Source: a virus
Strand: one strand, 5' to 3'
IMG/VR virus record: IMGVR_UViG_3300028391_000007
Span: 1 to 41,130 of that record
DNA: 41,130 nucleotides
This document shows positions 13,851 to 39,508 of the stretch, piece after piece. Position 1 is the first letter of the stretch; every line of letters starts with the position of its first letter. Below the pieces are notes generated by a model that worked only from the letters and a program-made list of their open reading frames with translations, made no database searches and was not told the DNA's origin. The translations under genes and the position numbers were made by a program.

Positions 13851-13882
13851 TTTGGATATTACAAATATTTTTCTTATATTTG
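13851..13882 (+). promoter_or_regulatory. Bacteroidetes-type promoter for the polymerase-like gene
   Basis: TTTG at 13851-13854, exactly 20 bases, then TATATTTG at 13875-13882, matching the known Bacteroidetes consensus TTTG-N(17-23)-TAnnTTTG. The 22 bases at 13862-13883 are identical to 24488-24509 in the promoter before the replicative helicase. This is the only such promoter inside the virion gene block. Confidence 0.8.
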
Positions 13883-13886
13883 TTAG

Positions 13887-15170
13887 ATGATTGTAGTAGA
13901 ATCTAATAAAGAGAAGGAGAATTTTATGCAAATGTGGGAAAATAATCCCTCAATTGTAATTCCTATATGGTCTGATTTGGATAAACATCCAATGAACAAT
14001 GAACTTGCGTTCTTATTCGTAAGGGTGGGGAAAACTGACTTTATTCTCATATATAATCATATTGATGGTAAATCCCATCATTTAGACCTTTCAACATCAA
14101 CACAACCAAAATGGGTATGGAATAAGAAAGGTTTATTACAAACTGGTACAAATATACAAAATATTTTTGATATATCCAACTATTACTTCTTTGAAAAGAA
14201 TCAAACTATACCCAATGAGGTACAAAATCAATCATTTATTTCACATTATATCCGAATGGGTATAAGAGATAATTTAGGAAAGATAGCACCTATAATGAAA
14301 TGGGGAGAGTATTTAAAATCATTTGTTGACAATATAAGTAGTACTATTCCTCCTCCCGATTTATCTCCTAAAAGTTGGATTGATGATACTATGATTCCTC
14401 TATTATCTCAGATTGAACGATATGGGGTTCGGGTCGAAGGGGAAAAATTTTTTGATAGATATCCACAAGCTACTAAACATTTAAACAACAATATCGTATA
14501 TACCGAATATAACCCATATACGATTACATCCCGTCCTTCCAACCGATTTGGGGGAATCAACTTCTCTGCTTTAAATAAAAAGGATGGAACGAGAGAAGTA
14601 TTTATTCCCAAAGATGGGCACATATTCCTACAAATGGATTATGATGCCTATCACCCCCGAATCATAGGTAAGTTGATTGATTACGAATTACCCGATACTT
14701 CGGTTCACCAATGGTTAGCGGACCAATATGGTGTTGATTATGGTGAATCTAAAGGAATTACATTCCAACTCCTTTATGGTGGGATACCCGAAGAGTTCGA
14801 TTCTATTCCTTATTATAAGAAGGTTAGAGAGTACATCGATGAAATGTGGGGTAACGCATCCAAAAAAGGTTATGTATCGACTTACAATCGAAATATACCC
14901 CTTAGTTCGATAGAAGGTTTGAATCCACAAAAAGTATTCAACTATTTACTACAAGCAACTGAAACTGAGTTAAATATGGATACAATGAGGAAAGTGTTGG
15001 AGTTTATTGAACAAACCGACATTGAGTTAAGTTTATACACATATGATTCATTCTTATTTTCTTTTCCATTAGATACTCCTAAAGAACAAGCTCTTAAATT
15101 AAAAGAAATTGTAGAAAGTAATGGGTTTCCTATAAATGCTAGTTGGGGTTCGGATTACTCAAAACTTTAA
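13887..15170 (+). CDS. Family-A DNA polymerase-like protein with altered active-site motifs
   Basis: 427 residues. From residue 170 the order of Pol I motifs is visible: IPLLSQIERYGVRVE (thumb entry), TSRPSN with R216 (Klenow R668 position), motif A MDYDAYHPR with D251, motif B ESKGITFQLLYGG with K289, F293 and Y297 (K758, F762, Y766), NYLLQATETEL with Q356 (Q849), and motif C YTYDSFLF with D387. Both catalytic aspartates remain. The steric-gate Glu is His256, the R754 position is Tyr285, and motif C reads YDS instead of HDE. The N-terminal 160 residues show no exonuclease acids. The first ATG lies only 4 bases after the promoter box (leaderless?); M14 at 13926, behind AAGGAGA, is an alternative start. 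Family membership is firm; activity is unknown. Confidence 0.75.
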   Translation: MIVVESNKEKENFMQMWENNPSIVIPIWSDLDKHPMNNELAFLFVRVGKTDFILIYNHIDGKSHHLDLSTSTQPKWVWNKKGLLQTGTNIQNIFDISNYYFFEKNQTIPNEVQNQSFISHYIRMGIRDNLGKIAPIMKWGEYLKSFVDNISSTIPPPDLSPKSWIDDTMIPLLSQIERYGVRVEGEKFFDRYPQATKHLNNNIVYTEYNPYTITSRPSNRFGGINFSALNKKDGTREVFIPKDGHIFLQMDYDAYHPRIIGKLIDYELPDTSVHQWLADQYGVDYGESKGITFQLLYGGIPEEFDSIPYYKKVREYIDEMWGNASKKGYVSTYNRNIPLSSIEGLNPQKVFNYLLQATETELNMDTMRKVLEFIEQTDIELSLYTYDSFLFSFPLDTPKEQALKLKEIVESNGFPINASWGSDYSKL

Positions 15171-19454: not shown

Positions 19455-20987
19455 ATGAAAATAGTTATAGCGGGTGGAGGAACTGCTGGTTGGTTATCAG
19501 CATTATTCCTAGCCAAACAAAATCTACATAGAGATGAACCAGCATACGATATCACTGTAATAGAAAGTGAAGATATTCCTATAATCGGAGCTGGAGAAGG
19601 TTCAACTGGAGTACTACAAAAAGTACTTTTATCAACACTAACACAATTAGAAGGATTTGGAGAGCAAGAGTTTTTCCAACATTGTAATACTACATTTAAA
19701 TTAGGAATTGATTGTATAGATTGGAATGGAGTAGGTGATAGATTCTTTGAATCGTTATCTGGAACACAAACTTCATTATGGCCATTGGATAGAGATTTTA
19801 CCCTTTGTTCAAAATATGGAGTAGCTGCAGAATCTAGTCCTAACAAATATCTTTGGGAAAAAAATCTAACACCATTTTTAAAAGCCGAAAGTAGTGATAA
19901 TTACGAAACTGGATATGCGTATCACTTTGATGCACATAAAGTTGGTGAATGGTTCAAAAAGATTGCATTAGAAAATGGAATCAAACTTCAAACAGGTACA
20001 ATAACTAATACAAATCTAAATCCTAAAAATGGTGAATTACAAAAGGTAATTTTAAAAGATGGAACTGAAATAGAATCTGATTTTTGGATTGATTGTACTG
20101 GATTCAATAGAGTACTAAGTAATGCAGTAGGTGCAGAGTGGGTTTCATACTCAGAATACCTTCCAATTAATTCAGCATTAGTTTATACACATCAATATGA
20201 AGAAAATGAACAAATTCCAAATGTAACAACCGCATGGGCAATGCCAAATGGTTGGATGTGGCAAATACCAACACAAGAAAGATTAGGATGTGGATATTGT
20301 TATTCTGATAAGTTTGTATCTGAGGAACAAGCCCTAAAAGAAATGCAAGAAATAACTGGTAGAAAGATTGAACCACTTAGAAATATAAAGTTCGATAGTG
20401 GTAGGTTGAAAGAAGTTTGGAAAAAGAATGTACTTTCAATAGGATTATCATCTTCCTTCTTAGAACCATTAGAAGCAACATCAATACATTCATCAATTAT
20501 TCAGTTAGTAGAATTAACACAACATCACTTATCTCCTTATAAAGAAGATATGATGAGAGAATCAAACATCAAAGCAAATAACGAACACTTCAATATGATG
20601 TTAGATGAATTTAGAGCGTTGATTCAAATTCACTATATCACAAAACGAAATGATACACCATTTTGGAAATATGTACACAATGACTTGAAAAGAGACCCAT
20701 TAGTTGAGAGTATTTTAGAAGTGTGTAAATGGAGAGTTCCAAACGCTAATGATTTTCCACATTACAATGGTTCAGCTGGTTGGGGTGTGTTTAATTGGAT
20801 ATTGGCAGGTAATGATTTAATTAGTAAAGAGGTATTAGATAAATCCTTACATACTCATAATTTTGAAAAATCATCTGAACAAATTTATAAACATATGGTA
20901 AAACAGTATACATTTGATAGTAAACAACACTTTCCACATACTGATTTTATCAAATGGACAAAAGATTTTGCAAAAAATCCAAAATAA
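19455..20987 (+). CDS. Flavin-dependent (tryptophan-type) halogenase
   Basis: 510 residues, the usual family length. N-terminal FAD-binding GGGTAGW (residues 7-13), GAGEGSTG (45-52), FKLGIDCIDW with the catalytic Lys (K82, PrnA K79 position), the hallmark WMWQIP (267-272), and SSSFLEPLEATSIH with E340 at the PrnA E346 position. The residue after E340, Ser in PrnA's halide site, is Ala here. Enzymes of this class use FADH2 and O2 to make hypohalous acid and halogenate aromatic rings. A phage relative, VirX1 of cyanophage Syn10, is known and prefers iodide. No flavin reductase is encoded in the window, so a host enzyme would supply FADH2. It is the last gene of a late-type unit beside Trp/Tyr-rich virion-type proteins. 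Confidence 0.9.
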   Translation: MKIVIAGGGTAGWLSALFLAKQNLHRDEPAYDITVIESEDIPIIGAGEGSTGVLQKVLLSTLTQLEGFGEQEFFQHCNTTFKLGIDCIDWNGVGDRFFESLSGTQTSLWPLDRDFTLCSKYGVAAESSPNKYLWEKNLTPFLKAESSDNYETGYAYHFDAHKVGEWFKKIALENGIKLQTGTITNTNLNPKNGELQKVILKDGTEIESDFWIDCTGFNRVLSNAVGAEWVSYSEYLPINSALVYTHQYEENEQIPNVTTAWAMPNGWMWQIPTQERLGCGYCYSDKFVSEEQALKEMQEITGRKIEPLRNIKFDSGRLKEVWKKNVLSIGLSSSFLEPLEATSIHSSIIQLVELTQHHLSPYKEDMMRESNIKANNEHFNMMLDEFRALIQIHYITKRNDTPFWKYVHNDLKRDPLVESILEVCKWRVPNANDFPHYNGSAGWGVFNWILAGNDLISKEVLDKSLHTHNFEKSSEQIYKHMVKQYTFDSKQHFPHTDFIKWTKDFAKNPK

Positions 20988-20988
20988 A

Positions 20989-21020
20989 TTTGGTAATCTC
21001 AAAATAATTTCTTATATTTG
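20989..21020 (+). promoter_or_regulatory. Bacteroidetes-type promoter, first of two before gp32
   Basis: TTTG 20989-20992, 20-base spacer, TATATTTG 21013-21020. It begins 1 base after the halogenase stop codon. Confidence 0.75.
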
Positions 21021-21068: not shown

Positions 21069-21100
21069 TTTGGAATTGTTAAAAACTTTTCGTATATTTG
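21069..21100 (+). promoter_or_regulatory. Bacteroidetes-type promoter, second of two before gp32
   Basis: TTTG 21069-21072, 20-base spacer, TATATTTG 21093-21100. Two promoters 80 bases apart suggest strong or staged expression of the single-strand binding protein. Confidence 0.75.
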
Positions 21101-26262: not shown

Positions 26263-26673
26263 ATGGAAGTTCTTGAATATCTCAAACATCATTTAAAAAC
26301 AGACATTGCACCATCTCCAATACATGGAATTGGTACATTTGCACTAACTGATATTAAAGTTGGTGAGCCGGTTTTTATGTTATGGCCTAACGAAAGTAGA
26401 GTTTATACGATTGATAGAAGTGAGTTTGAAGAACTTCCAGACTTTACTAAAAGGTTAATTCTAAAATCGTATCTGAATAAATCAGATTATCCTCTCGTTT
26501 GGTTTAGATTATTTAGGGATTGTTATTTTAATTTAGCAAACCCATTAGTTTATACAAATACAGCTGAAAAAGATGGTAACTTTGATTCGATGAAACGGGT
26601 AGCAGTAAAACCGATAAAAGCAGGTGAAGAGATTTTAGGTAATTATAAATTAGAAGATACAATATTAAAATGA
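26263..26673 (+). CDS. SET-domain protein (putative protein lysine methyltransferase)
   Basis: 136 residues, the size of minimal viral SET enzymes. IHGIGTFALTDIKVGEPVF (20-38) matches the N-terminal SET motif; FNLANPLVYTN (89-99) matches the N-H/L-x-x-x-N cofactor region; and AVKPIKAGEEILGNYKLED (114-132) matches the GEEL-x-Y-x-Y motif that closes the active site. SET enzymes transfer methyl groups from S-adenosylmethionine to lysines. The directly preceding gene encodes a Lys-rich Hc1-like histone, an obvious candidate substrate; a chlamydial SET protein is reported to methylate Hc1. The last base pair step overlaps mazG (ATGA). Confidence 0.75.
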   Translation: MEVLEYLKHHLKTDIAPSPIHGIGTFALTDIKVGEPVFMLWPNESRVYTIDRSEFEELPDFTKRLILKSYLNKSDYPLVWFRLFRDCYFNLANPLVYTNTAEKDGNFDSMKRVAVKPIKAGEEILGNYKLEDTILK

Positions 26674-30270: not shown

Positions 30271-30474
30271 ATGCCAATACTAAGGGGACAGACTCATCCT
30301 TCCGCAAAATTAACGGATGAGCAAGTTTTAAATATCAGAAAACTATGGAAAATGGGACACCGAAATGTTCGAGTTATGGCTCGTAACAATAAGTGTTCTT
30401 CAGCCAACATCATTAAGATTGTTAAGAATAAGACTTGGACACATTTGAATGAATTTTGGTCTGGTAGTTTATGA
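30271..30474 (+). CDS. Small HTH DNA-binding protein, homing-endonuclease-type recognition domain
   Basis: 67 residues with the pattern HPSAKLTDEQVLNIRKLW, then VRVMARNNKCSSANIIKIVK and NKTWTHL. This is the helix-turn-helix module usually found at the C-terminus of phage HNH homing endonucleases, but no nuclease domain is attached. It could be a regulator, or the remnant of an endonuclease. Its stop codon overlaps the start of the first Mom-like gene (ATGA at 30471-30474), so the two are translated together, hinting at a regulatory link. Confidence 0.7.
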   Translation: MPILRGQTHPSAKLTDEQVLNIRKLWKMGHRNVRVMARNNKCSSANIIKIVKNKTWTHLNEFWSGSL

Positions 30475-31238
30475 AAGAAGAAAAAACATATTGTGATACT
30501 TCTAAACTTTCTATACGTCTTATCACAAAATCAGTAGCTAAAGATATTATTGTAAACAATCATTATAGTGGATTGTGGACAAAGGTATCTTACGCAATTG
30601 GTTTGTTTACTTCGGATGTTGAAGAACATCCTTTTTTTGATAACGTAGAAGATAAACTAATTGGAGTAGCTTGTTATGGAGACCCGATTGGTAGAAGTGC
30701 TGGGCAATCTATTTCCCCTTTATTGGAAAGAACTGAAGTTTTAGAACTAACTAGATTATTTGTATTTGATGATTATGGTTCAAATATAGAGAGTTGGTTT
30801 TTAGGTCAAACATTTAATTGGTTAAGAGAGAACGTACCTCATATAAAAGGATTGATATCTTACTCAGACCCTAAAGAAGGTCATTGTGGTACGATTTACC
30901 AAGCAACTAATTGGTTGTATCAGGGTAATAAACTAAGGTTCAATGATAGTTGGGATTTCAAATGGGAAGAAGGTGGTGAATGGCACCACGGAAGAACTTC
31001 CTATGTAAAATTTGGAACAAATAATCCCAAAGAAATACAAAAAATAACATCATCTACATTTTGGATAAAGAAAAATCCAAGAAAACATAGATATGTGTAC
31101 ATTTTATCAAAAGGTGGGGAAAGAAGAAAGTTAATGAAGAACATTAAACACCCAATATTCCCTTATCCTAAAGAAAATGAAGAATTTGTGGAAGAAATTC
31201 ATAGAATGGACCCAATAAATTTGGAAATTACAAAATAA
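30471..31238 (+). CDS. Mom-like DNA-modification protein (GNAT fold), copy 1
   Basis: 255 residues. Motifs are an N-terminal AKDIIVNNHYSG (23-34), LIGVACYGDPIG (63-74), LELTRLFVFDDYGSN (91-105), and SYSDPKEGHCGTIYQATNW (130-148) with LYQG. This combination is the pattern of the Mom family ('adenine methylcarbamoylation' proteins of phage Mu and relatives), GNAT-fold enzymes that modify adenine to hide phage DNA from restriction. The C-terminal KHRYVYILSKGGERRKLMK is shared with the second copy at 31405. It lies at the end of the nrd operon, translationally coupled to the HTH gene. The substrate and exact modification cannot be read from sequence. Confidence 0.65.
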   Translation: MKEEKTYCDTSKLSIRLITKSVAKDIIVNNHYSGLWTKVSYAIGLFTSDVEEHPFFDNVEDKLIGVACYGDPIGRSAGQSISPLLERTEVLELTRLFVFDDYGSNIESWFLGQTFNWLRENVPHIKGLISYSDPKEGHCGTIYQATNWLYQGNKLRFNDSWDFKWEEGGEWHHGRTSYVKFGTNNPKEIQKITSSTFWIKKNPRKHRYVYILSKGGERRKLMKNIKHPIFPYPKENEEFVEEIHRMDPINLEITK

Positions 31239-31251
31239 TTTATTATATTAG
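31220..31251 (+). promoter_or_regulatory. Bacteroidetes-type promoter between the two Mom-like genes
   Basis: TTTG 31220-31223, 20-base spacer, TATATTAG 31244-31251 (one base off consensus). It begins inside the 3' end of the first Mom-like gene, and the 52-aa ORF starts only 7 bases after it, implying a leaderless or near-leaderless mRNA. Confidence 0.65.
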
Positions 31252-31258
31252 TAAAATT

Positions 31259-31417
31259 ATGACAGAAGAAAGAGAAATAGAAGAAATTCTAATGGAATCT
31301 CACTCATTTGGGTTGAGAAACGAAGTGATGAAAACTGCTTCTGAAATTATGGGTAATAATCCTAAGATAAGAAGAGTAGATGCGTATCACCAAGCTTTTA
31401 AAGAATGGGTAAAGTAG
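31259..31417 (+). CDS. Small acidic ORF upstream of second Mom-like gene (52 aa)
   Basis: A 52-residue ORF (MTEEREIEEILMESHSFGLR ... RRVDAYHQAFKEWVK), mostly acidic and helical with a short basic part in the middle. It starts right after a promoter and overlaps the second Mom-like gene by 13 bases in another frame, so translation is likely coupled. No family was recognised. A regulator or partner of the Mom-like protein is possible; in phage Mu, mom is preceded by the small overlapping gene com, which controls its translation. No Com-type zinc motif (Cys) is visible here. Confidence 0.55.
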   Translation: MTEEREIEEILMESHSFGLRNEVMKTASEIMGNNPKIRRVDAYHQAFKEWVK

Positions 31418-32211
31418 ACGGAAAACATTATGTAGATGCAACTAAGGTAAGTGTAGCTCCTATTGCTAAATCTATCGCTAAAGATATGATTATCAAAAAG
31501 CACTATACTCACGCTTGGACTGCTTGTAGATACGCATTGGGTATCTATCACACAATGGATGAAAATGATATATTCGGAAATGACCAAGAATTAGTTGGTG
31601 TAGCTGTATATGGATTTCCAGTTGGTGCAAAAGCATCCACTTCAGTTTGTGAAGGGTTAACCAAAGATAACATATTAGAACTTACTCGTTTATATGTAGA
31701 TGATGGTTATGGTTCAAATATTGAAAGTTGTGCATTAGGTAAAACCTTTCAATGGTTAAAGGATAATGATAAGAATATTAAAGTTCTTTTATCTTATGCT
31801 AATAATGGACAAGGACATGTTGGTGGAATATACAAAGCAACTAATTGGATTTATCAGGGTTTGAATACTGATATCGCTTTGATGCCAAATTGGGGTATTT
31901 CACTATCTAATGACCCATTTGATTGGATTCACTCAAGAACTGTATTTAATAATTGGGGAAGTGGTAACTTAGAACACCTTAGAAAAGAAATCGGTAAGCA
32001 GGGTTACAAAGAATTTTGGAGAAGAGAAGAACCACCAAAACATAGATACATTCAGATTCTTGCTCAAAATAAAAAAGAGAAAAAAGATTTAATCAAAAGG
32101 TTAAAGCATGAGATAAGACCTTATCCAAAAGATTTAAATGATTATAATACTGAAGTGGTACATCATACAACATATCCACCTGAAGAAAGTAATGAAATAA
32201 ATTTTTGGTAA
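31405..32211 (+). CDS. Mom-like DNA-modification protein (GNAT fold), copy 2
   Basis: 268 residues, homologous along its length to the protein at 30471: AKDMIIKKHYTHAW (25-38), LVGVAVYGFPVG (63-74), LELTRLYVDDGYGSN (91-105), SYANNGQGHVGGIYKATNW (130-148) and the C-terminal KHRYIQILAQNKKEKKDLIK. The Asp of SYSD in copy 1 is Asn here (SYAN), close to the presumed active site, so the two may differ in substrate or activity. The start overlaps the 52-aa ORF. It is followed by a promoter for the nuclease-like gene. Confidence 0.65.
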   Translation: MGKVDGKHYVDATKVSVAPIAKSIAKDMIIKKHYTHAWTACRYALGIYHTMDENDIFGNDQELVGVAVYGFPVGAKASTSVCEGLTKDNILELTRLYVDDGYGSNIESCALGKTFQWLKDNDKNIKVLLSYANNGQGHVGGIYKATNWIYQGLNTDIALMPNWGISLSNDPFDWIHSRTVFNNWGSGNLEHLRKEIGKQGYKEFWRREEPPKHRYIQILAQNKKEKKDLIKRLKHEIRPYPKDLNDYNTEVVHHTTYPPEESNEINFW

Positions 32212-32215
32212 AATA

Positions 32216-32247
32216 TTTGGATAATTAAAATATTATTCGTATATTTG
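32216..32247 (+). promoter_or_regulatory. Bacteroidetes-type promoter before the DGQHR/HNH gene
   Basis: TTTG 32216-32219, 20-base spacer, TATATTTG 32240-32247. The roughly 95-base leader downstream carries two similar hairpins (32263-32284 and 32307-32329). Confidence 0.8.
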
Positions 32248-32262
32248 TAAAACAAAAGAGTT

Positions 32263-32284
32263 GATATCACTCTATAACGATATC
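32263..32284 (+). promoter_or_regulatory. Leader hairpin / operator, copy 1
   Basis: GATATC at 32263-32268 pairs with GATATC at 32279-32284, enclosing the loop ACTCTATAAC. Closely related to copy 2, 44 bases downstream, with a compensating base-pair change in the stem. Likely an RNA element or operator in the mRNA leader. Confidence 0.55.
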
Positions 32285-32306
32285 GAAACTGTTAAATATG
32301 GGGTAA

Positions 32307-32329
32307 GGTATCACCTCAATAACGATACC
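32307..32329 (+). promoter_or_regulatory. Leader hairpin / operator, copy 2
   Basis: GGTATC at 32307-32312 pairs with GATACC at 32324-32329, enclosing ACCTCAATAAC. Compared with copy 1 the second stem pair changes from A-T to G-C on both sides, which favours selection for structure. It ends 17 bases before the start codon at 32347. Confidence 0.55.
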
Positions 32330-32346
32330 ACTTAAATTATTATATT

Positions 32347-33867
32347 ATGGCATTTAAAAAATCAATTGATGCAAAAGTTCTAACGGGTGGAACTCTAAAC
32401 AAACTCAGAGAATTATTTCCCTACATTCATGTAGATAAACACCAACTTCAAAGACTATTATCAGAGTGGGATGACCAAACCAAAGCTGAACATATGAGAG
32501 CTTGTTTCGAAGGTCATTCTAACATCTATACAATAGTTCTTATTAGTATAGAGGGTTGTTTAAATTATTGTAATGAAATTATTTCAGATTATGATAAAGA
32601 AGATACTCAATATGCAGCTGTAAAAGAGACTATTGATTACCTATCTGACTTAAAATCTAAAGGTAAAAAATACTTAAATATTGATGGTCAACATAGGGTA
32701 AAGACATATGAAGATTTTCTTAAATCTAAGTTTACATTAGATAAGAATGTAATTGATTACATTGAAAGAGATGGAAAAACTCCAATTGCTTATGATATGA
32801 AGGGTAAGGTGTTTAAAGATATGCCCGAAGAAACTCAAAAAGCAGTATTGGAAACACCATTAACATTGGTTATGATAAATAAAGCAACTCTACAAGATAT
32901 GGTAGATGTAACTATTTATACCAATATTGGTGAACCTTGGAATAATCACGAAAGACGAATTATCGTACCATCTAAATTCAATAGATTTTTGATGAGTTAT
33001 ATGAATGATAATCCTCTATTGGAGGCAATGTTTAATAATACAAAAAATCTATCTAGTGCATACTCTCTTTTAAAGAAAGGTGATTCATTGATAATTGCTG
33101 AGTGGATTACTTATTACTATAATGTTTTGAAGAACGATATCTATAAGTGGCCAAAAGAATCTCAATTAGATTTACAATCATCTGTGGTTGGATTAGATGG
33201 ACAATCTACTTCAAAATTAAAAAAATCTACAAAAGTAGTATCTAAAGTGGTGGATATGACAAACACAATTTCAAGTGTAAAATTTGAAAGAACACTTTTA
33301 GATAATTTATTCATATTACTTACTATATTGGAAACTTCATCGCATCCATTAAATTCTTTCCAAAAGAAAGTTAAGATTGGTAATCTAAGTAAATTTATGG
33401 ATTGGTTTATGAAAATGGAATCCAAATTAAGAGAAGCTGATTATTACATTAAAGATACTGATGGTAATATTGTTGTAGAACCAATTACAGGTAAAAAAAT
33501 GACAAATTCAGAATCATTTAAAAGAAAATGTGGAGCTAAAAAAGTAGATGATATTCAACTTAGAAGTAATCTGATGATTGAAGAATTCAACAATGATTAT
33601 GATAACTTATTTGCATCTGGTGTTGTATCTTTAGTTGATACCAAAAATTATACTAAAAAGGATAAGTTAGAAGCTGCTATCGAAAATGATTGGATAGATG
33701 CTAGTGGTGAGGAGTTTACTTTTGAAGAACTTATGGGGTCTGATTCAATAATTGAAGGAGACCATCAAGAAGCTAGAGATGCTGGTAATGATACTTCAAA
33801 AGAAAATTTGGTTCTTAGAAACAAAAGAGCAAATATTAGAAAATCAAATAAACAAATAATAAATTAA
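32347..33867 (+). CDS. DGQHR/DUF262-like protein with C-terminal HNH-type nuclease motif
   Basis: 506 residues. NIDGQHRVKTYEDFL (111-125) is the DGQHR motif shared by DUF262/ParB-like domains of GmrSD and SspE nucleases and of DndB-type regulators. The middle is mostly helical. The C-terminus has IEGDHQEARDAGNDTSKENL (469-488), then a LRNKRANIRKSNK end (490-502), matching the HNH layout DH...GG...N...N..K. Proteins joining these two domains restrict modified or unmodified foreign DNA, often sensing modification through the DGQHR part. Here the gene sits between Mom-like modification genes and a glycosyltransferase, with its own promoter and hairpin leader. Its stop overlaps the next start (TAATG). 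Whether it cuts host, rival-phage or unmodified DNA is unknown. Confidence 0.6.
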   Translation: MAFKKSIDAKVLTGGTLNKLRELFPYIHVDKHQLQRLLSEWDDQTKAEHMRACFEGHSNIYTIVLISIEGCLNYCNEIISDYDKEDTQYAAVKETIDYLSDLKSKGKKYLNIDGQHRVKTYEDFLKSKFTLDKNVIDYIERDGKTPIAYDMKGKVFKDMPEETQKAVLETPLTLVMINKATLQDMVDVTIYTNIGEPWNNHERRIIVPSKFNRFLMSYMNDNPLLEAMFNNTKNLSSAYSLLKKGDSLIIAEWITYYYNVLKNDIYKWPKESQLDLQSSVVGLDGQSTSKLKKSTKVVSKVVDMTNTISSVKFERTLLDNLFILLTILETSSHPLNSFQKKVKIGNLSKFMDWFMKMESKLREADYYIKDTDGNIVVEPITGKKMTNSESFKRKCGAKKVDDIQLRSNLMIEEFNNDYDNLFASGVVSLVDTKNYTKKDKLEAAIENDWIDASGEEFTFEELMGSDSIIEGDHQEARDAGNDTSKENLVLRNKRANIRKSNKQIIN

Positions 33868-34997
33868 TGAGAGTATTAGTAATACCTAATTATACAAATT
33901 TTGGACAAGTAAAGGATATCAATAGGGATTCGTTCCTATTGGTATTCAAATCTTTTTTAGATAACACACAAATTGGTAAAGAATGGGAGTGGGTTTTACC
34001 TTATCCAGGTGGTGGAATGCATAATCATCCTGGTATTATAAACACCTTTGAATACCCGAATGTAACGATGTTACAAATGGACCCGATAGATTGTTTCCCA
34101 GCTAAGATGCGAGTTGATTATCCTCATAAATTTTTTGAGAAAACTATTGAGAAATATGAAGGAGAATTCAATTTAGTATGGTCACACCTACCAGAATGGA
34201 CTAATTTATATAAGATATCAAGAATATATAATAAATTACAACCAATAATTGGGTACTGTCATTGGAGTGAAATACCTGAAAATGGTGCAAGAACTGAAAA
34301 CTCATTTTGGACAAACATTAGAGGTATTTTACAAATGGAAGTTTGTGGTGTAAACTCAAATTATCAGAAAAGTGTTATTCTTAAAAACGCAGCTAAAGAT
34401 TTCCAACCACATATCGTTGAAAAGTTGGATAAGATTATTCAGCCTTGGTATTTAGGATGTGATTCAGCTACTCCATCAAATGGGTATGATGATAAAACAA
34501 TCGTATTCAATCATAGAGAAGGTGTTTATACTGGTTCTAAGTGGTTTTGGGAAACTATGGATGAGTTATGGAAAGAAAGACAAGATTTCAAAGTTTATAC
34601 TACCTTAAAAGAAATGGGTAAATCATACACTAAATATATTGGAGCAGCTGATAGAAAAGTATATCTAAATCAGTTATCAAAAGCACATTTTGGTGTAGGT
34701 ACGTTTCAAGGTTATTCAGCTTGGAGTATGAGTACAACTGATGGATTTTCAGTAGGTGTACCATATTTACTACCAAATGATTTTTGTTATCCTGAAATGG
34801 TGGGTAATGATTATCCACTTCTTTATAATGGCAAGAAAGAATTTAAGGAAATGGTAATTAAGTTATTAGATGGTGATATTAAAAGACCTGATGTAACCCA
34901 TCTTGCCCAATCTCTTTTATGGGAATCACAAATTGAAAAATATTGGAATGTAGATAAAAACTTTATTAATACTGCTAGAAAAGAATTTAATGTATAA
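33867..34997 (+). CDS. GT-B-like glycosyltransferase, possibly acting on DNA
   Basis: 376 residues. It begins with a Rossmann strand MRVLVIPNYTNFGQV and has the two-domain GT-B look: TIVFNHREGVYTGSKWFWET (start of the second domain), FKVYTTLKEMG, then LSKAHFGVGTFQGYSAWSMS and TDGFSVGVPYLLPND with YPEMVG, the usual sugar-nucleotide-binding region (E-G-x-G/S... P). The substrate cannot be told from sequence. T4 uses GT-B enzymes to glucosylate DNA bases, and this gene is coupled on both sides (TAATG with the DGQHR/HNH gene, 8-base overlap with gp43), which favours a DNA-related role over a surface-sugar one. Confidence 0.6.
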   Translation: MRVLVIPNYTNFGQVKDINRDSFLLVFKSFLDNTQIGKEWEWVLPYPGGGMHNHPGIINTFEYPNVTMLQMDPIDCFPAKMRVDYPHKFFEKTIEKYEGEFNLVWSHLPEWTNLYKISRIYNKLQPIIGYCHWSEIPENGARTENSFWTNIRGILQMEVCGVNSNYQKSVILKNAAKDFQPHIVEKLDKIIQPWYLGCDSATPSNGYDDKTIVFNHREGVYTGSKWFWETMDELWKERQDFKVYTTLKEMGKSYTKYIGAADRKVYLNQLSKAHFGVGTFQGYSAWSMSTTDGFSVGVPYLLPNDFCYPEMVGNDYPLLYNGKKEFKEMVIKLLDGDIKRPDVTHLAQSLLWESQIEKYWNVDKNFINTARKEFNV

Positions 34998-37512
34998 AAA
35001 TTGTTATTACCAACGAGAAAAGAATCTCGTTCACATTTGGGATGATAAACAAGGATATAGAGCATTTCCTTATACTCGATACGCTTATGAAAAAGCAGTA
35101 AATGGCCCATTCACCACTTTATATGGTGATAAAGTAAGTAAGATTTACAAATTCAAAAAGGATGATCCTGATTTATTCGAAAGTGATGTACCTGAAACTA
35201 CAAGAGTATTAGTAGATACTTATACTGATTCGGATTTACCATCAGAAGGACACGTTATTCTTACATACGATATTGAGTGTGAAATGGAGAGTGGTTTACC
35301 AAATCCAGAAGAAGCAGAAAATGAATTAACTTCAATAGCATTACATGATTCTGCTACCAATCAATATTGGGTGTTGGTTATGGATAAAGATGGTATCTTA
35401 GAAGAGAAAACAACGGATAAATGTATTGTACTTCCTTTCAGAACTGAAGAGGATATGTTAATGAAGTATTTGGAGTTATATGAGATGATAAATCCATCTA
35501 TTGTAACTGGTTGGAATATCGATTACTTTGATACACCAATGTTGTATAATCGTATCAAACGATTATTAGGTAAAAGACACGCTAATAGATTATCACCAAT
35601 CGGTGAGTGTTTTTGGTCACCTTATCGTAAGAGATACTTTATGGCGGGTGTATCTTATTTAGATTATCTCTCACTTTATAAAAACTTTACATACTCAGAA
35701 TTAGATTCATATCGATTAGATTCTATTGCACAAAAAGAGTTAGGTAGAGGTAAGATTGAATATGATGGAAATTTGGATATTCTTTTCAAAGAAGATATTG
35801 AGAAGTTTATTGAATATAACTTAGTGGATGTTGAGTTAGTAGTTGAGTTTGATAAAAAACTTCAATTCATTGATACTGCAAGAGGTATTTGTCACGCTGG
35901 ACATGTTCCTTATGAAGATTTCGTTTATTCATCAAAATACTTAGAAGGTGCACTTTTAACTTATTTGAAAAGAAAAAGTATTGTAGCACCTAACAAACCT
36001 GCTGATAGAAGAGAACGAATGGAAGCTCTTAAAGAAAATAAGCAAGAGAAGTTTATCGGAGCTTATGTAAAAGCACCAATCGTTGGAAAGTATGATTGGA
36101 TATATGATTTGGATTTAACTTCACTATATCCATCAATTATTATGACAATTAATATTTCACCTGAAACAAAGATGGGTAAGATTGCTGATTGGAGTGCTGA
36201 GGATTTCGTAAAAGATAAGAGAGATAGTTGGGAAATTAATGGTGATAAAATCACACAAGAAAATCTAAAGAAGTTTTTTGAAAGAAGTAAATTTTCAGTT
36301 GCATCAAATGGTGTTTTATATAGAACTGATAAAGTAGGTTGTATTCCTGATATTTTGGATTTATGGTTCTCTCAGAGAGTTGAGTTCAAAAACAAAATGA
36401 AAGAATATGGAAAAAGTGGAGAAAAAGAAAAATACGAATGGTATAAAAAACGTCAGTTGGTTCAGAAAATTTTACTTAACTCTTTATATGGTGTGCTTGG
36501 CCTTCCTGCCTTTAGGTTCTATGATGTTGATAATGCTACCGCTGTTACCACAACGGGACAGACAGTTATTAAATCAACTGCGGATATGGCTAACATCAAA
36601 TATAATAAGGAGCTTAATACTCCTGATGCTGACTCTAATATATACATTGATACTGATTCAGTATTTTTCTCAGCAGCACCTCTTTTAGACCATAGGATTC
36701 CTAATTGGAAAGATAATGACCAACAAACAATAGCTGGGTTTGTAAATGATATTGCTGGTGAGATGCAAGATTATCTCAATGATTTTTATGATATTCTTGC
36801 TGAAAAGGTATTCAACGTAGATAAGGATAAACACCGATTTGAGATTAAGAAAGAATATGTTTCAAAAGCCGGTATTTGGATTGCTAAGAAACGATATGCA
36901 CAATGGATTATATCAGATAATGGTGTACCTGTTGATAAGTTAGATGTAAAGGGATTGGATGTTGTACGTTCTTCATATCCAGCAGCATTTAGAAAGTTTA
37001 TGAGTGAGGTTCTTATTGAAATTCTTAGAGGTGATACTGAAGAACAACTTACAAATAGAGTTTACGATTTCAAAAATGATTTGGTAAATATGGATGTTGT
37101 TAAGATTGCTAAAGCAGGGGCTGTAAAAAACTTAAATAAATACATGCCTAAAAAGAAAGACCAAACGGCAATGTTCCAATTCATTAGTGGAACACCAGCA
37201 CACGTAAAAGCATCAATTGCATACAATCAATTGTTAAAACACTTCAAAGTGGAAAATCAATACGAACCTTTGAAGGGTGGTGATAAAATTAAATGGGTAT
37301 ATTTGAAACAAAATCAATATGGGTTAGATGCAGTAGCTATGAATGGTTACAATGACCCACCTCAGATTATGGAGTTAATAAAAACTCATATCAACCACGA
37401 TAAAATCTTCGAAAGAGAACTTCTAAAGAAATTAGAAGATTTCTACGGAGCATTAGGGTGGGGAGAAGTTCTCTCTTCCAAAAAGACAGCTGAAAAGTTT
37501 TTCTCTTTTTAG
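34990..37512 (+). CDS. 43: Replicative DNA polymerase, family B (T4 gp43)
   Basis: 840 residues (T4: 898). Proofreading motifs: YDIECEME (D94, E96), VTGWNIDYFDTPML, and YNLVDVELVVEFD. Polymerase motifs: A DLDLTSLYPSII (about 373), B KILLNSLYGVLGLPAFRF (about 490), C YIDTDSVFF (D554, D556). All catalytic acids are present, so this is the working replicase, held by clamp gp45 (next gene) and loaded by gp44/62. The C-terminal KTAEKFFSF resembles the clamp-binding tail of phage polymerases. Its start overlaps the glycosyltransferase gene by 8 bases, so expression is linked to the modification block. Confidence 0.95.
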   Translation: MYKNCYYQREKNLVHIWDDKQGYRAFPYTRYAYEKAVNGPFTTLYGDKVSKIYKFKKDDPDLFESDVPETTRVLVDTYTDSDLPSEGHVILTYDIECEMESGLPNPEEAENELTSIALHDSATNQYWVLVMDKDGILEEKTTDKCIVLPFRTEEDMLMKYLELYEMINPSIVTGWNIDYFDTPMLYNRIKRLLGKRHANRLSPIGECFWSPYRKRYFMAGVSYLDYLSLYKNFTYSELDSYRLDSIAQKELGRGKIEYDGNLDILFKEDIEKFIEYNLVDVELVVEFDKKLQFIDTARGICHAGHVPYEDFVYSSKYLEGALLTYLKRKSIVAPNKPADRRERMEALKENKQEKFIGAYVKAPIVGKYDWIYDLDLTSLYPSIIMTINISPETKMGKIADWSAEDFVKDKRDSWEINGDKITQENLKKFFERSKFSVASNGVLYRTDKVGCIPDILDLWFSQRVEFKNKMKEYGKSGEKEKYEWYKKRQLVQKILLNSLYGVLGLPAFRFYDVDNATAVTTTGQTVIKSTADMANIKYNKELNTPDADSNIYIDTDSVFFSAAPLLDHRIPNWKDNDQQTIAGFVNDIAGEMQDYLNDFYDILAEKVFNVDKDKHRFEIKKEYVSKAGIWIAKKRYAQWIISDNGVPVDKLDVKGLDVVRSSYPAAFRKFMSEVLIEILRGDTEEQLTNRVYDFKNDLVNMDVVKIAKAGAVKNLNKYMPKKKDQTAMFQFISGTPAHVKASIAYNQLLKHFKVENQYEPLKGGDKIKWVYLKQNQYGLDAVAMNGYNDPPQIMELIKTHINHDKIFERELLKKLEDFYGALGWGEVLSSKKTAEKFFSF

Positions 37513-38290: not shown

Positions 38291-39508
38291 ATGAGTTTTT
38301 GGGATACCGAACCAGCAAAACCTGAATTTATATTCGAAGATGAGAAAAGAAAACTCATTGAGAATATGGACTACCTTATGACAATGAGTGTAGAAGAACA
38401 AACACTTTATAAAAAGTGGGTTGAGTTGCAAGAGGATTCTATGATTAGAGATAAATCCCAAATCGCTACTCTTTATGATGCACAATGGAAACCAACTGAT
38501 ATCAACAATAAGGAACTAACAATCAAAGAAATTGAAGAGTTAGAACCTTATGTTGAAATCGTAGAGGATTCAACTGAAGCTACAAAGTGGACTTATCTTA
38601 GAAAGATGATTCACACTATGAGTTGGACAGCTAATCCTGGTAGAAATGTGAAATTGTTTATCAAAGATAAAAAGAGTGGTAAACTTTTAGGTTTAGTATC
38701 TTTAGCATCAGATGTAACATCTATGAAAGTAAGAGATGATTATATCGGATGGAATAAAGAGAACAAATTCAAAGAGGGTAAGTTGAACTACACAACTATC
38801 GCATCCACCATTGTTTGTACCCAACCTTTAGGTTACAACTTTTTAGGTGGTAAACTCACCGCAATGATGACTACTGTTCCAGAAGTTAGAGAGTATTGGA
38901 AAAAGAAGTATGGGCAAACATTGATAGGTGTAGGAACAACTTCCCTTTATGGAATTCATTCACAATATAATGGTATTCCACATTTTAAAACGTTAGGAGA
39001 ATCAGCTGGTAAGATTGCATTGAAACCTGATGATGAGTTCTATGACCCTTGGCATCAATGGATTAAGGAAAATAGAGCTGATTGGTATGAAAATGCTATT
39101 ACTAATGAAAGAATCCGAAATGGTAAATCTATGGGAACTGGTAAAGGAGCTAGTGGACCTGTGAGTGGTATCAAACAAAAGATACTTTCTCAGATTTTCA
39201 AAGAATGTGGTATTAGAGCATCCGATTATCATCACGGATTCAAAAGAGGAGTATATCTTGCTATGATGTATGAAAATGGACCTGAGTTCCTTCGTTCAGA
39301 AATTGAGGAATCAGAACTTAAAATGAAAAAGAAGTTTGTTGAGGGTGTTGATTACATTAATAATTGGTGGAAAAGACAAGCAATTAAAAGATACTCAAAG
39401 TTACATGATTCTGGTAGATTGAAACCTGAAGATTTATTCTATATCGATGGTATAGGTAAAGATTGGGAAACTTTCAAATCAGATAGATTAAACGAAGTAG
39501 GTAGATAA
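38291..39508 (+). CDS. DruA-like (DUF4338-type) protein in the clamp/clamp-loader cluster
   Basis: 405 residues. GKLLGLVSLASDVTSMKVRD then YIGWNKE (148-156), FLGGKLTAMM (184-193), WKKKYGQTLIGVGTTSLYG (203-221), and YNGIPHFKTLGESAGK (226-241) follow the DUF4338 pattern (L-x-G-...-RDxxIGW ... YG ... T-T-S-L-Y-G ... Y-N ... LGES/T-x-G). That family includes DruA, the signature protein of the Druantia anti-phage system. The molecular role of DruA is not firmly known; the fold may be GNAT-like. Here it lies between sliding clamp and clamp loader, 20 bases from gp45 and 10 from gp44, so it is probably expressed with the replication machinery. Family assignment is by eye. Confidence 0.6.
   Translation: MSFWDTEPAKPEFIFEDEKRKLIENMDYLMTMSVEEQTLYKKWVELQEDSMIRDKSQIATLYDAQWKPTDINNKELTIKEIEELEPYVEIVEDSTEATKWTYLRKMIHTMSWTANPGRNVKLFIKDKKSGKLLGLVSLASDVTSMKVRDDYIGWNKENKFKEGKLNYTTIASTIVCTQPLGYNFLGGKLTAMMTTVPEVREYWKKKYGQTLIGVGTTSLYGIHSQYNGIPHFKTLGESAGKIALKPDDEFYDPWHQWIKENRADWYENAITNERIRNGKSMGTGKGASGPVSGIKQKILSQIFKECGIRASDYHHGFKRGVYLAMMYENGPEFLRSEIEESELKMKKKFVEGVDYINNWWKRQAIKRYSKLHDSGRLKPEDLFYIDGIGKDWETFKSDRLNEVGR

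What the first reader, a model, noticed from the sequence alone, without database searches (positions are those of the whole stretch)
30471..34997. Possible DNA-modification-and-nuclease island: two Mom-like genes, DGQHR-HNH, glycosyltransferase
Seen: two homologous Mom-pattern GNAT proteins, a DGQHR protein with an HNH-type end, and a GT-B-like enzyme lie in a row, with the last coupled by overlap to gp43. Known: Mom proteins modify adenine; DUF262/DGQHR-HNH proteins (GmrSD, SspE) restrict DNA according to modification; T4 glucosylates bases with GT-B enzymes. Inference: the phage marks its own DNA and may carry a nuclease that destroys unmarked host or rival DNA. I know of no described phage system with this set.
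Basis: partly seen in the sequence, partly recalled or inferred. Interest (0 to 1): 0.85.

Follow-up and report, generated by a model that had tools for sequence, protein, structure and literature searches.

The report
Swappable nuclease slot beside DNA-modification genes
Uncultured T4-like phages, probably of Bacteroidota, keep the same DNA-modifying genes next to their DNA polymerase but exchange, like a plug-in, the restriction-like nuclease gene between them, which in the window's type is preceded by two tiny RNA knots.

Summary
The four genes are real. Two are strong Mom-family members. The 506-aa protein is a divergent GmrSD/SspE-type protein: ParB/Srx fold with an HNH-like tail. The last is conserved; its glycosyltransferase identity is only weakly supported. 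The main result lies beyond the finding. In related viral contigs the order orf67-Mom-Mom-[slot]-GT-polymerase persists, but the slot is exchanged cleanly. Three close relatives (93-96% identical GT) match the window on both sides (86-93% DNA identity), with no match between MomB's 3' end and the last 20-30 bp before GT. Of 47 distinct slots, 42 hold a large protein of five sequence families with, at graded strength, ParB-type N-termini and HNH-like or PD-(D/E)XK-like tails; one holds a small HNH-like gene; four hold neither. Slot type is uncoupled from the GT tree (18 changes; shuffles 19.4). The window's slot has a Bacteroidota-type promoter. In its family, 11 of 12 leaders carry H-type RNA pseudoknots with covarying stems (20 found, 0.3 expected). 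Best reading: a stable modification core plus interchangeable, RNA-controlled nucleases aimed at competing DNA. Activity is untested; homing is the main rival.

The parts
30271..30474 (+). orf67, small HTH-like protein resembling the C-terminal end of HNH endonucleases; overlaps the MomA start by 4 bp
   Evidence: phrog_20467 E 9e-5; present upstream of the first Mom in 39 of 39 distinct slot loci that reach far enough
30471..31238 (+). MomA, Mom-family GNAT
   Evidence: PF25680 E 7.5e-45, 153.5 bits; dN/dS 0.04-0.14 in 8 comparisons, 0.28 in a ninth (L063, which has a single Mom gene)
31220..31251 (+). relaxed form of a Bacteroidota-type promoter-like element (TTTG-N20-TATATTAG), partly inside the end of MomA, upstream of orf52/MomB
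31259..31417 (+). orf52, small ORF overlapping the MomB start
   Evidence: conserved in part of the relatives
31405..32211 (+). MomB, second Mom-family GNAT, 42% identical to MomA
   Evidence: PF25680 E 3e-45, 154.8 bits; dN/dS 0.05-0.10 in 8 comparisons, 0.19 in L063
32213..33845 (+). the swap slot: stretch with no DNA match in the close relatives L093, L094 and L095 while both sides match at 86-93% (left ends 32213-32257, right ends 33836-33846 by relative)
32216..32247 (+). Bacteroidota-type promoter-like element TTTGG...CGTATATTTG of the slot gene
   Evidence: 12 matches in the window, 6 on each strand, against 3.1 expected; relaxed pattern in 22 of 47 slots against 59 of 2106 control segments
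32257..32284 (+). H-type RNA pseudoknot unit 1 (AGAGT|T|GATATC|ACTCT|ATAAC|GATATC)
32299..32329 (+). H-type RNA pseudoknot unit 2 (TGGGGT|AA|GGTATC|ACCTCA|ATAAC|GATACC), one G-U pair
32347..33867 (+). slot gene: 506-aa GmrSD/SspE-like protein (QR, DGQHR, N motifs; HNH-like end)
   Evidence: alignment A5; AF2 model pLDDT 77.7; BFVD GmrSD_N/DUF262 E 4e-9 and 8.4e-9; VIA BrxU Z 7.2, SspE Z 6.8; PADLOC NsnA 1.1e-8
32374..32940 (+). ParB/Srx-type N-terminal domain of the slot protein (residues 10-198)
   Evidence: VIA: SspE 3.6 A over 147, ParB-CDP 3.4 A over 94
33739..33855 (+). HNH-like C-terminal motif (H473, G480, N496; residues about 465-503), low model confidence
33867..34997 (+). conserved putative glycosyltransferase; its ATG overlaps the slot gene's stop (TAATG)
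   Evidence: 315 viral stretches encode a relative; only one relative of 20 matches Glycos_transf_1, below cut-off
34990..37512 (+). DNA polymerase (T4 gp43-like; name from a DNA match to PolB of a Microcystis phage)
38291..39508 (+). DruA-like protein (DUF4338, a GNAT by PMC10853773), next to GT in L065, L066, L067 and L073; possible further part of the modification module
   Evidence: PF14236 76.8 bits against 27

Best explanation
The locus is a two-layer conflict module of T4-like phages, probably of Bacteroidota. Layer 1 is a stable modification core beside the replication genes: MomA and MomB add an acyl-type group to DNA bases, and a putative glycosyltransferase and perhaps the DruA-like GNAT act with them (Mom identity shown; chemistry inferred). 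Layer 2 is an exchangeable cassette between MomB and GT: often its own promoter, plus one large protein with a ParB/Srx-type sensor/NTPase domain and a nuclease-like tail; in the window, a GmrSD/SspE-like DGQHR-HNH protein. Cassettes are replaced as units bounded by the conserved MomB end and GT start (shown). The most likely use is interference: the sensor domain reads the modification state of DNA, NTP turnover licenses the nuclease, and DNA lacking the core's mark or bearing a rival's mark (host chromosome, co-infecting phage) is cut, while the core's broad mark lets the phage carry any of several nucleases (inferred). In the window's family the mRNA leader carries H-type pseudoknots, mostly in tandem, most likely an RNA brake that the protein binds to repress its own translation (structure supported by covariation; role inferred).
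For: Mom pair. GmrSD-type fold: invariant QR, DG[QK]HR and N in 15 of 15 aligned sequences; relative L083 passes the Pfam GmrSD_N cut-off (35.2 against 33.2 bits); 11 BFVD hits at or below 1e-3, of which 7 are named GmrSD_N or DUF262 (best 4e-9); BrxU, SspE, ParB and Srx lead the VIA list. Alternative occupants: the 'DRGH' family model (pLDDT 85.3) has SspE as best PDB hit (E 0.016, prob 0.75) and ParB and SspE matches over residues 12-223; c17 and c8 link to it by profile (probability 95% and 58%, against 0.1-0.2% for the pairs without a link); c7 has a weak ParB_N match (E 0.0029) and an EVK motif after a D (by eye). Swap. Slot gene under purifying selection (dN/dS 0.05-0.22) and with lower dS (0.56) than its flanks (MomB and GT 0.87) between the window and L004/L098, as expected of later transfer. 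A related nuclease next to a GT without a Mom in the fetched stretch: L080, L081, L082, L086, 4 of the 7 records L080-L086. Pseudoknots.
Against: No activity data. The HNH-like end of the window protein is the least confident part of the model and matches no Pfam family; the middle N of the triad is N in 8 of 15. In the DRGH family 7 of 21 have Q or R for the catalytic-type H, the modelled L020 included, so part of them may be dead as nucleases. The window protein itself does not reach Pfam GmrSD_N. In the PDB no Foldseek hit of either model reaches E 0.001 and TM-scores are low; the BrxU match has rmsd 14 A; VIA Z values under 8 can mean only a common arrangement, and for the DRGH model a single-helix match ranks above ParB. 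The core exists without such a gene (L055, L102, L137, L139), and a related nuclease without Mom nearby, so they are not an obligate pair; in record G010 (locus L130) the Mom pair lies about 14 kb from the GT. Modification chemistry is inferred; Tet/JBP was found in 0 of 10 related records, but that search had no positive control.
Confidence: 0.5

Rival explanations
1. The slot genes are homing-type selfish genes: each cuts the allele that lacks it near the MomB-GT junction and spreads by repair, so replacement reflects drive rather than any use to the phage.
For: Clean replacement at one site, slot type uncoupled from flank phylogeny, alleles without such a gene (L139 with 7 bp between MomB and GT, L102 with 52 bp), HNH-like ends, a small endonuclease-like slot gene in L018 (PHROG endonuclease E 6.4e-5), and true GIY-YIG/NUMOD3 homing-type endonucleases in the same place in 2 of 47 slots (L043, L047).
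Against: Size (about 400-676 aa) and GmrSD/SspE/ParB-type domains are not those of known homing enzymes (recalled); none of the large slot proteins tested matched a homing-enzyme Pfam family; purifying selection; linkage to GT where no Mom is seen and the gene order differs, which a fixed-site homing gene would not need.
Confidence: 0.22
2. The slot proteins are regulators of the modification enzymes, like DndB, binding NTPs and nucleic acid without cutting DNA.
For: DGQHR is the DndB signature (PMC4619093 passages); 7 of 21 DRGH proteins lack the H; structured leader and own promoter suggest autoregulation.
Against: A regulator of a conserved core should be conserved, yet it is replaced by other sequence families or missing; the HNH-type H and last N are invariant in 15 of 15 of the window's family; c7 carries a PD-(D/E)XK-like tail instead.
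Confidence: 0.13
3. The nuclease mainly degrades the host chromosome for nucleotides, the mark sparing the phage genome, as T4 does with its own enzymes (T4 recalled).
For: T4-like phage with its own ribonucleotide-reductase-like genes (names recalled); marked self and unmarked host is the simplest use of such a pair.
Against: A housekeeping role does not explain replacement and absence in close relatives.
Confidence: 0.1
4. The leader pseudoknots plus nuclease form a type III-like toxin-antitoxin pair: the RNA units bind and silence the nuclease until transcription stops.
For: H-type pseudoknots of 26-32 nt upstream of a nuclease-like gene in 11 of 12 leaders, two in tandem in 9 of them, as ToxI 36-nt pseudoknots go with ToxN (PMC12373285 passages).
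Against: No terminator-like site between units and gene in the window; the protein showed no match to a ToxN/AbiQ-type enzyme in the libraries searched; DRGH-family leaders have none (0 of 22).
Confidence: 0.1

Closest known systems
Mom-nuclease systems predicted in jumbo phages (Iyer et al. 2021, PMC7824862; passages, one other section)
   Same: Phage-borne Mom with a nuclease, proposed to mark self and attack host or superinfecting phage.
   Different: There a REase-fold domain is fused to Mom; here a separate, exchangeable slot gene of mainly GmrSD/ParB type lies between a Mom pair and a GT, in the window with its own promoter and RNA pseudoknots.
GmrSD / BrxU / SspE / DndI (DUF262 + DUF1524)
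   Same: ParB/Srx-type N-domain with QR, DGQ[QH]R, N motifs; HNH-type end; overall model.
   Different: Window protein has no Pfam GmrSD_N match; it lies in a phage, beside modification genes, in a swap slot; target unknown.
Menshen NsnA (the NsnA-Menshen link is recalled; DUF262 in Menshen from PMC10952713 passages)
   Same: Best PADLOC match (E 1.1e-8, residues 107-233).
   Different: Menshen has no DUF1524 by that paper; here an HNH-like tail is present. An OLD-type partner was not searched for.
Free-standing homing endonucleases of T4-like phages (recalled)
   Same: Endonuclease-like genes at one site, presence/absence polymorphism.
   Different: Large sensor-type N-domains, linkage to modification genes.
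T4 gene 32 leader pseudoknot (PMC3014915 passages)
   Same: Pseudoknot in a T4-like mRNA leader upstream of the start codon.
   Different: Two units in tandem, before a nuclease-like gene; that review (2010) thought gene 32 might be the only viral case of translational autoregulation by a pseudoknot.
Type III toxin-antitoxin (ToxIN; PMC12373285 passages)
   Same: RNA pseudoknot repeats upstream of a nuclease-type gene.
   Different: Other protein family, no terminator seen.

Membership tests
Mom (PF25680) | match over the curated cut-off | tested here: met
   153.5 and 154.8 bits against 27.1
Mom (PF25680) | modification of adenine N6 in DNA | not testable with these tools
   needs mass spectrometry or nanopore of virion DNA
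GmrSD (DUF262 + DUF1524) | QR, DGQ[QH]R and FxxxN motifs of the N-domain | tested here: met
   Q35 R36, D113 G114 H116 R117, N193 in 15 of 15; position 115 Q in 9, K in 6 (the F of FxxxN was not counted); motifs as in PMC4619093 (passages)
GmrSD (DUF262 + DUF1524) | Pfam GmrSD_N (PF03235) over cut-off | tested here: inconclusive
   window protein no match; one relative of the same alignment, L083, 35.2 bits against 33.2; L023 and L080 none
GmrSD (DUF262 + DUF1524) | ParB/Srx fold of the N-domain | tested here: met
   BFVD GmrSD_N/DUF262 E 4e-9 and 8.4e-9; SspE, BrxU, ParB, Srx in the VIA list, Z 4.4-7.2; no PDB Foldseek hit at E 0.001
GmrSD (DUF262 + DUF1524) | HNH nuclease C-domain (D/E-H-N-N) | tested here: inconclusive
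   H473 15/15, N496 15/15, D472 8/15, N487 8/15; no Pfam match; pLDDT under 50 over most of it
GmrSD (DUF262 + DUF1524) | cleavage that depends on DNA modification | not testable with these tools
   biochemistry needed
GT-B glycosyltransferase | Pfam glycosyltransferase match | tested here: inconclusive
   window protein none; 1 of 20 relatives (L082) E 2.7e-4, below cut-off; profile comparison no link
GT-B glycosyltransferase | two Rossmann-like domains | not tested
Homing endonuclease | GIY-YIG, LAGLIDADG or small HNH with NUMOD-type domains | tested here: not met
   no such Pfam match in the window's slot protein; the extra ORFs in L043 and L047 do match
Homing endonuclease | cuts the empty allele and is copied into it | not testable with these tools
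   alleles without a slot gene exist
Type III toxin-antitoxin | tandem pseudoknot RNA repeats upstream of the toxin gene | tested here: met
   two units in the window; at least one in 11 of 12 leaders of the family, two in 9
Type III toxin-antitoxin | terminator between repeats and toxin gene (feature recalled) | tested here: not met
   none of the 4 terminator-like sites found lies there
Druantia DruA | PF14236 over cut-off | tested here: met
   76.8 bits against 27; PADLOC DruA 2.8e-18
Druantia DruA | Druantia partner genes | not tested
   -

The most novel reading that the evidence does not exclude
T4-like phages carry a dedicated 'weapon slot': a fixed, generic DNA mark (Mom pair, GT, possibly DruA) frees them to exchange ParB-sensor nucleases, and the window's type is held in check by tandem RNA pseudoknots that bind the nuclease or act in its mRNA, so that phage-phage competition runs through swappable, RNA-restrained restriction enzymes.
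Probability: 0.3. Interest if true: 0.9.

Novelty: new variant of a known kind. Interest (0 to 1): 0.72.

Why it matters
It turns a vague 'modification and nuclease island' into a testable arrangement: one conserved mark, many interchangeable nucleases, defined exchange borders, a known type of promoter and a compact RNA element. If right, restriction-like enzymes of the GmrSD/SspE type are used by phages as exchangeable weapons, and their cost is managed at the RNA level. The DRGH family (26 of 47 slots) is a large set without a known name: the five members scanned had no Pfam match over a cut-off and only weak PHROG matches of unknown function (best 0.004), yet the modelled member resembles SspE in structure.

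Tried and rejected
Sequence search of the slot families in PDB chains found nothing useful, nor did tblastn of three slot families and of the GT in 50,697 phage records. The one genome-contig scan, with A5, confirmed no relative among 19 pattern matches (one short peptide pattern, so weak evidence of absence). Profile comparison of the DGQHR family with the DRGH family gave no sequence link; only the folds agree. Identification of the GT by PDB profile, PHROGs (1 of 20 matches a glycosyltransferase PHROG at 0.071), Pfam Glycos_transf_1 in the window (none) and comparison with 9 ORFs around GT4-type matches failed. Thymidylate-synthase-type genes occur in 5 of 10 long related records, but synthase and hydroxymethylase cannot be told apart by that model, so they were not used. 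A recent duplication of Mom was rejected: 42% identity, each copy with its own orthologues. An E. coli-type promoter scan gave no more than chance (27 against 29.0); the Bacteroidota-type pattern did, though 6 of its 12 matches lie on the - strand. Rfam had no match above a cut-off. 'Nuclease requires Mom' was dropped because of L080-L086. Polaribacter phage P12002L, the nearest named Mom, has a DNA methylase and no such slot beside it. The MAFFT alignment of pseudoknot units put stems with different loop lengths out of register and was not used; arms were compared directly: all 8 distinct S1 and 7 distinct S2 arm pairs are complementary, against means of 2.75 and 1.47 (largest 7 and 7) after dealing the 3' arms anew. 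Units were chosen for pairing, so the count against shuffles is the main evidence. VIA lists do not show every family; absence there is not used. PMC8670742 was searched for Mom and glycosyltransferase terms without result; passages of PMC3874153 were seen and not used.

Full report
WHAT IS THERE. The window is a 41-kb virus record from a T4-like phage: tail, recombination and replication genes, large ORFs on one strand, about 32% G+C (gene names other than those with a cited match are recalled from the look of the translations). Between a thioredoxin-like gene and the DNA polymerase lie orf67, MomA (30471-31238), orf52, MomB (31405-32211), a 506-aa protein (32347-33867) and a 376-aa protein (33867-34997) that overlaps the polymerase by 8 bp. 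Both Mom proteins are certain by family score. The 376-aa protein is conserved, but its name 'glycosyltransferase' rests on one relative of 20, below the Pfam cut-off; 6 of 20 match DUF3473 weakly instead, and other routes failed.

THE 506-aa PROTEIN. Fifteen aligned sequences (A5) keep QR, DG[QK]HR and the later N, signatures listed for GmrS in PMC4619093 (passages), and an H and N near the C-terminus. One relative passes the Pfam GmrSD_N cut-off, while the window protein does not. PADLOC gives NsnA at 1.1e-8. The AlphaFold2 model (pLDDT 77.7, pTM 0.74) has 11 BFVD hits at or below 1e-3, 7 of them named GmrSD_N or DUF262, best 4e-9 and 8.4e-9. In the PDB no Foldseek hit is significant, but BrxU is first (E 0.24) and DndI third. 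On VIA, BrxU (Z 7.2, but rmsd 14 A over 281), SspE (Z 6.8, 3.6 A over 147), ParB (5.4), Noc, KorB and sulfiredoxin make up most of the first 16 rows. So the ParB/Srx-type N-domain is well supported; the HNH tail rests on motif alone, as its model confidence is mostly under 50.

THE SLOT. Fetching relatives of the 506-aa protein and of the GT gave 163 loci; with the window and two pieces of it, 166 records. In 136 of them a Mom gene precedes a GT gene within 7 kb; many are repeat fetches of one contig and collapse to 47 distinct slot sequences. Where the fragment reaches, orf67 is there in 39 of 39, two Mom genes in 37 of 39 (L014 has one, L057 three), and the polymerase follows in 40 of 40. 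Slot content: 26 'DRGH' proteins (586-676 aa), 12 DGQHR-HNH (one of them, L006, broken), 2 of a 398-399-aa type (c7), one c8, one c17, one small HNH-like gene (L018), and 4 without such a gene (L055, L102, L139; L137 holds only a small ORF and a member of the GT_PLOD-type cluster). L093, L094 and L095 match the window left of 32213, 32257 and 32249 (91.4, 85.7 and 93.3%) and again from 33845, 33846 and 33836 (89.8, 88.3 and 90.7%), with no match between. The right border is the last 20-30 bp of the slot gene, where the GT ribosome-binding region should lie. In L139 the MomB stop is followed by the GT start after 7 bp. On a GT protein tree of 47 tips the slot type needs 18 changes; 200 label shuffles need 19.4 on average (sd 1.2; 39 of 200 at or below 18), so slot type carries almost no memory of the flank phylogeny. 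Pairs with 99-100% identical GT carry different slot types (L041/L043, L046/L048, L101/L102). Caveats: identical slots were merged before the count, 'none' counts as a type, and the GT search kept the best 80 of 315 relatives. Exceptions to the order exist: in G010 (L130) the Mom pair lies about 14 kb from the GT.

WHAT THE OTHER OCCUPANTS ARE. Five of 26 DRGH proteins were scanned and have no Pfam, PHROG or PADLOC identity worth the name. The family's model (L020, pLDDT 85.3) has SspE as best PDB match (E 0.016, probability 0.75, low TM-score). On VIA, ParB-CDP (3.0 A over 94), SspE (4.1 A over 128) and ParB-N domains cover residues 12-247; most other rows, the first included, are matches of one long helix. 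Landmarks come in the same order as in GmrS: NR, D-x-G, then N. The C-terminal H is H in 14 and Q or R in 7 of 21. c17 and c8 link to the DRGH family by profile over its N-terminal part (95% and 58%; pairs without a link 0.1-0.2%). c7 has a ParB-like N-terminus (ParB_N E 0.0029 in L159, below cut-off; none in L150) and a C-terminal D...GGIEVK stretch like PD-(D/E)XK (by eye). Common theme: a ParB-type front, of graded support, with exchangeable nuclease-like ends. Two slots also hold GIY-YIG/NUMOD3 homing-type genes, and some a GT_PLOD-type glycosyltransferase.

SELECTION AND TRANSFER. The slot gene is under purifying selection (dN/dS 0.05-0.22 in 6 comparisons, two pairs of which are near duplicates); MomA 0.04-0.28, MomB 0.05-0.19, GT 0.06-0.17 in 9 comparisons; the highest Mom values are from L063, whose single Mom gene was compared with both. 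Against L004/L098 the slot gene has dS 0.56 while MomB and GT have 0.87 and the polymerase 1.17, as expected if the slot moved later than its flanks; against L063, L076, L068 and L071 its dS (0.96-1.29) is not lower than that of GT (0.76-1.01). In L080, L081, L082 and L086 a divergent DGQHR-HNH gene sits next to a divergent GT with no Mom found on the fragment; L083-L085 show no GT. In L065, L066, L067 and L073 the DruA-like gene lies between GT and polymerase, and DruA-like matches also lie on the fragments of L082 and L083. DUF4338 is called a GNAT in PMC10853773 (passages). So GT, DruA-like gene and slot nuclease tend to travel together when the surroundings change.

EXPRESSION SIGNALS. A Bacteroidota-type promoter pattern (consensus recalled) occurs 12 times in the window against 3.1 expected (0 of 100 shuffles reach 12). 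Six of the 12 are on the - strand; four on the + strand with TTTGG...TATATTTG lie in gaps between genes. One of these, 32216-32247, lies directly after MomB. A relaxed form lies between MomB and the first slot ORF in 22 of 47 slots, against 59 of 2106 control segments; 25 of 47 do not show it. The window's leader then holds two interlocked stem pairs, H-type pseudoknots, at 32257-32284 and 32299-32329. With strict Watson-Crick stems, 11 of 12 distinct leaders of the DGQHR family carry at least one and 9 carry two (20 in all; 0.3 expected from dinucleotide shuffles), 1 of 2 of c7, 0 of 22 of DRGH, and 0 of 3 others. Several of the 12 leaders are near-identical, so they are not 12 independent cases. 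For the window the strict scan chose a shifted second unit; the G-U-tolerant scan gives the one listed. That tolerant scan also gives 17 other hits on the + strand and 5 on the - strand of the window, so a single hit means little; tandem, position-conserved units with changing arms are the evidence. Arms vary in concert: 8 distinct S1 and 7 distinct S2 arm pairs all pair. The divergent relatives L023, L080, L082, L083, L085 and L086 have no such unit. Rfam has no match above cut-off.

HOW IT MOST LIKELY WORKS. Shown: Mom pair, GmrSD-type N-domain of the slot protein, clean and frequent exchange, selection, structured leader. Inferred: a broad base modification by the core; a sensor domain that reads DNA modification and uses NTP, as in BrxU and SspE (PMC10952713 passages); cutting of DNA that lacks the core mark or carries a rival's; restraint by the leader RNA. 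Since the same core sits with several nuclease types and with none, the mark is unlikely to be a custom antidote to one enzyme. Frequent exchange fits conflict with changing opponents better than a fixed task such as host-DNA breakdown; homing drive explains the exchange equally well and is the chief rival.

NOVELTY. Phage Mom plus nuclease is predicted in PMC7824862 (passages), and phage-borne GmrSD_N proteins exist in databases, so the kind is known. I saw no description of the exchange slot, the DRGH family or the pseudoknot leader in the listings of ten searches of the paper library; that library lacks most subscription journals and bioRxiv.

Noticed in passing
38291-39508: DruA-like (DUF4338) protein between clamp and clamp-loader genes; conserved in relatives and also, at about 30%, in Pelagibacter phages; one cyanophage homologue is annotated 'methylcarbamoylase mom'.
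   Followed up: partly
19455-20987: 510-aa protein that looks like a flavin-dependent tryptophan halogenase (recalled from the sequence pattern, no search).
   Followed up: no
13887-15170: 427-aa ORF that looks like the palm part of a family A DNA polymerase, besides the polymerase at 34990 (recalled pattern, no search).
   Followed up: no
26263-26673: 136-aa protein that looks like a SET-type domain (recalled pattern; no NCBIfam or PADLOC match).
   Followed up: no
13851-13882, 20989-21020, 21069-21100: Further Bacteroidota-type promoter-like elements TTTGG...TATATTTG in gaps between genes.
   Followed up: partly
L043:1075-1965 and L047:2625-3554: GIY-YIG endonucleases with NUMOD3 repeats inserted between MomB and the slot gene.
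   Followed up: partly
L012:5312-6001, L023:5273-6001, L082:494-1303: GT_PLOD-type glycosyltransferases near slot gene and GT (PF25342 E 3.6e-11 to 2.9e-29).
   Followed up: partly
L083:2278-2937: 219-aa protein right after the GmrSD_N-positive gene that looks like a PD-(D/E)XK enzyme (by eye).
   Followed up: no
G005:C1:100475-100903 and G006:C1:130525-131100: Third Mom-family gene elsewhere in two long related records.
   Followed up: no
L006:984-2503: Slot gene broken into two ORFs of 346 and 156 aa while MomB and GT beside it are full length.
   Followed up: no
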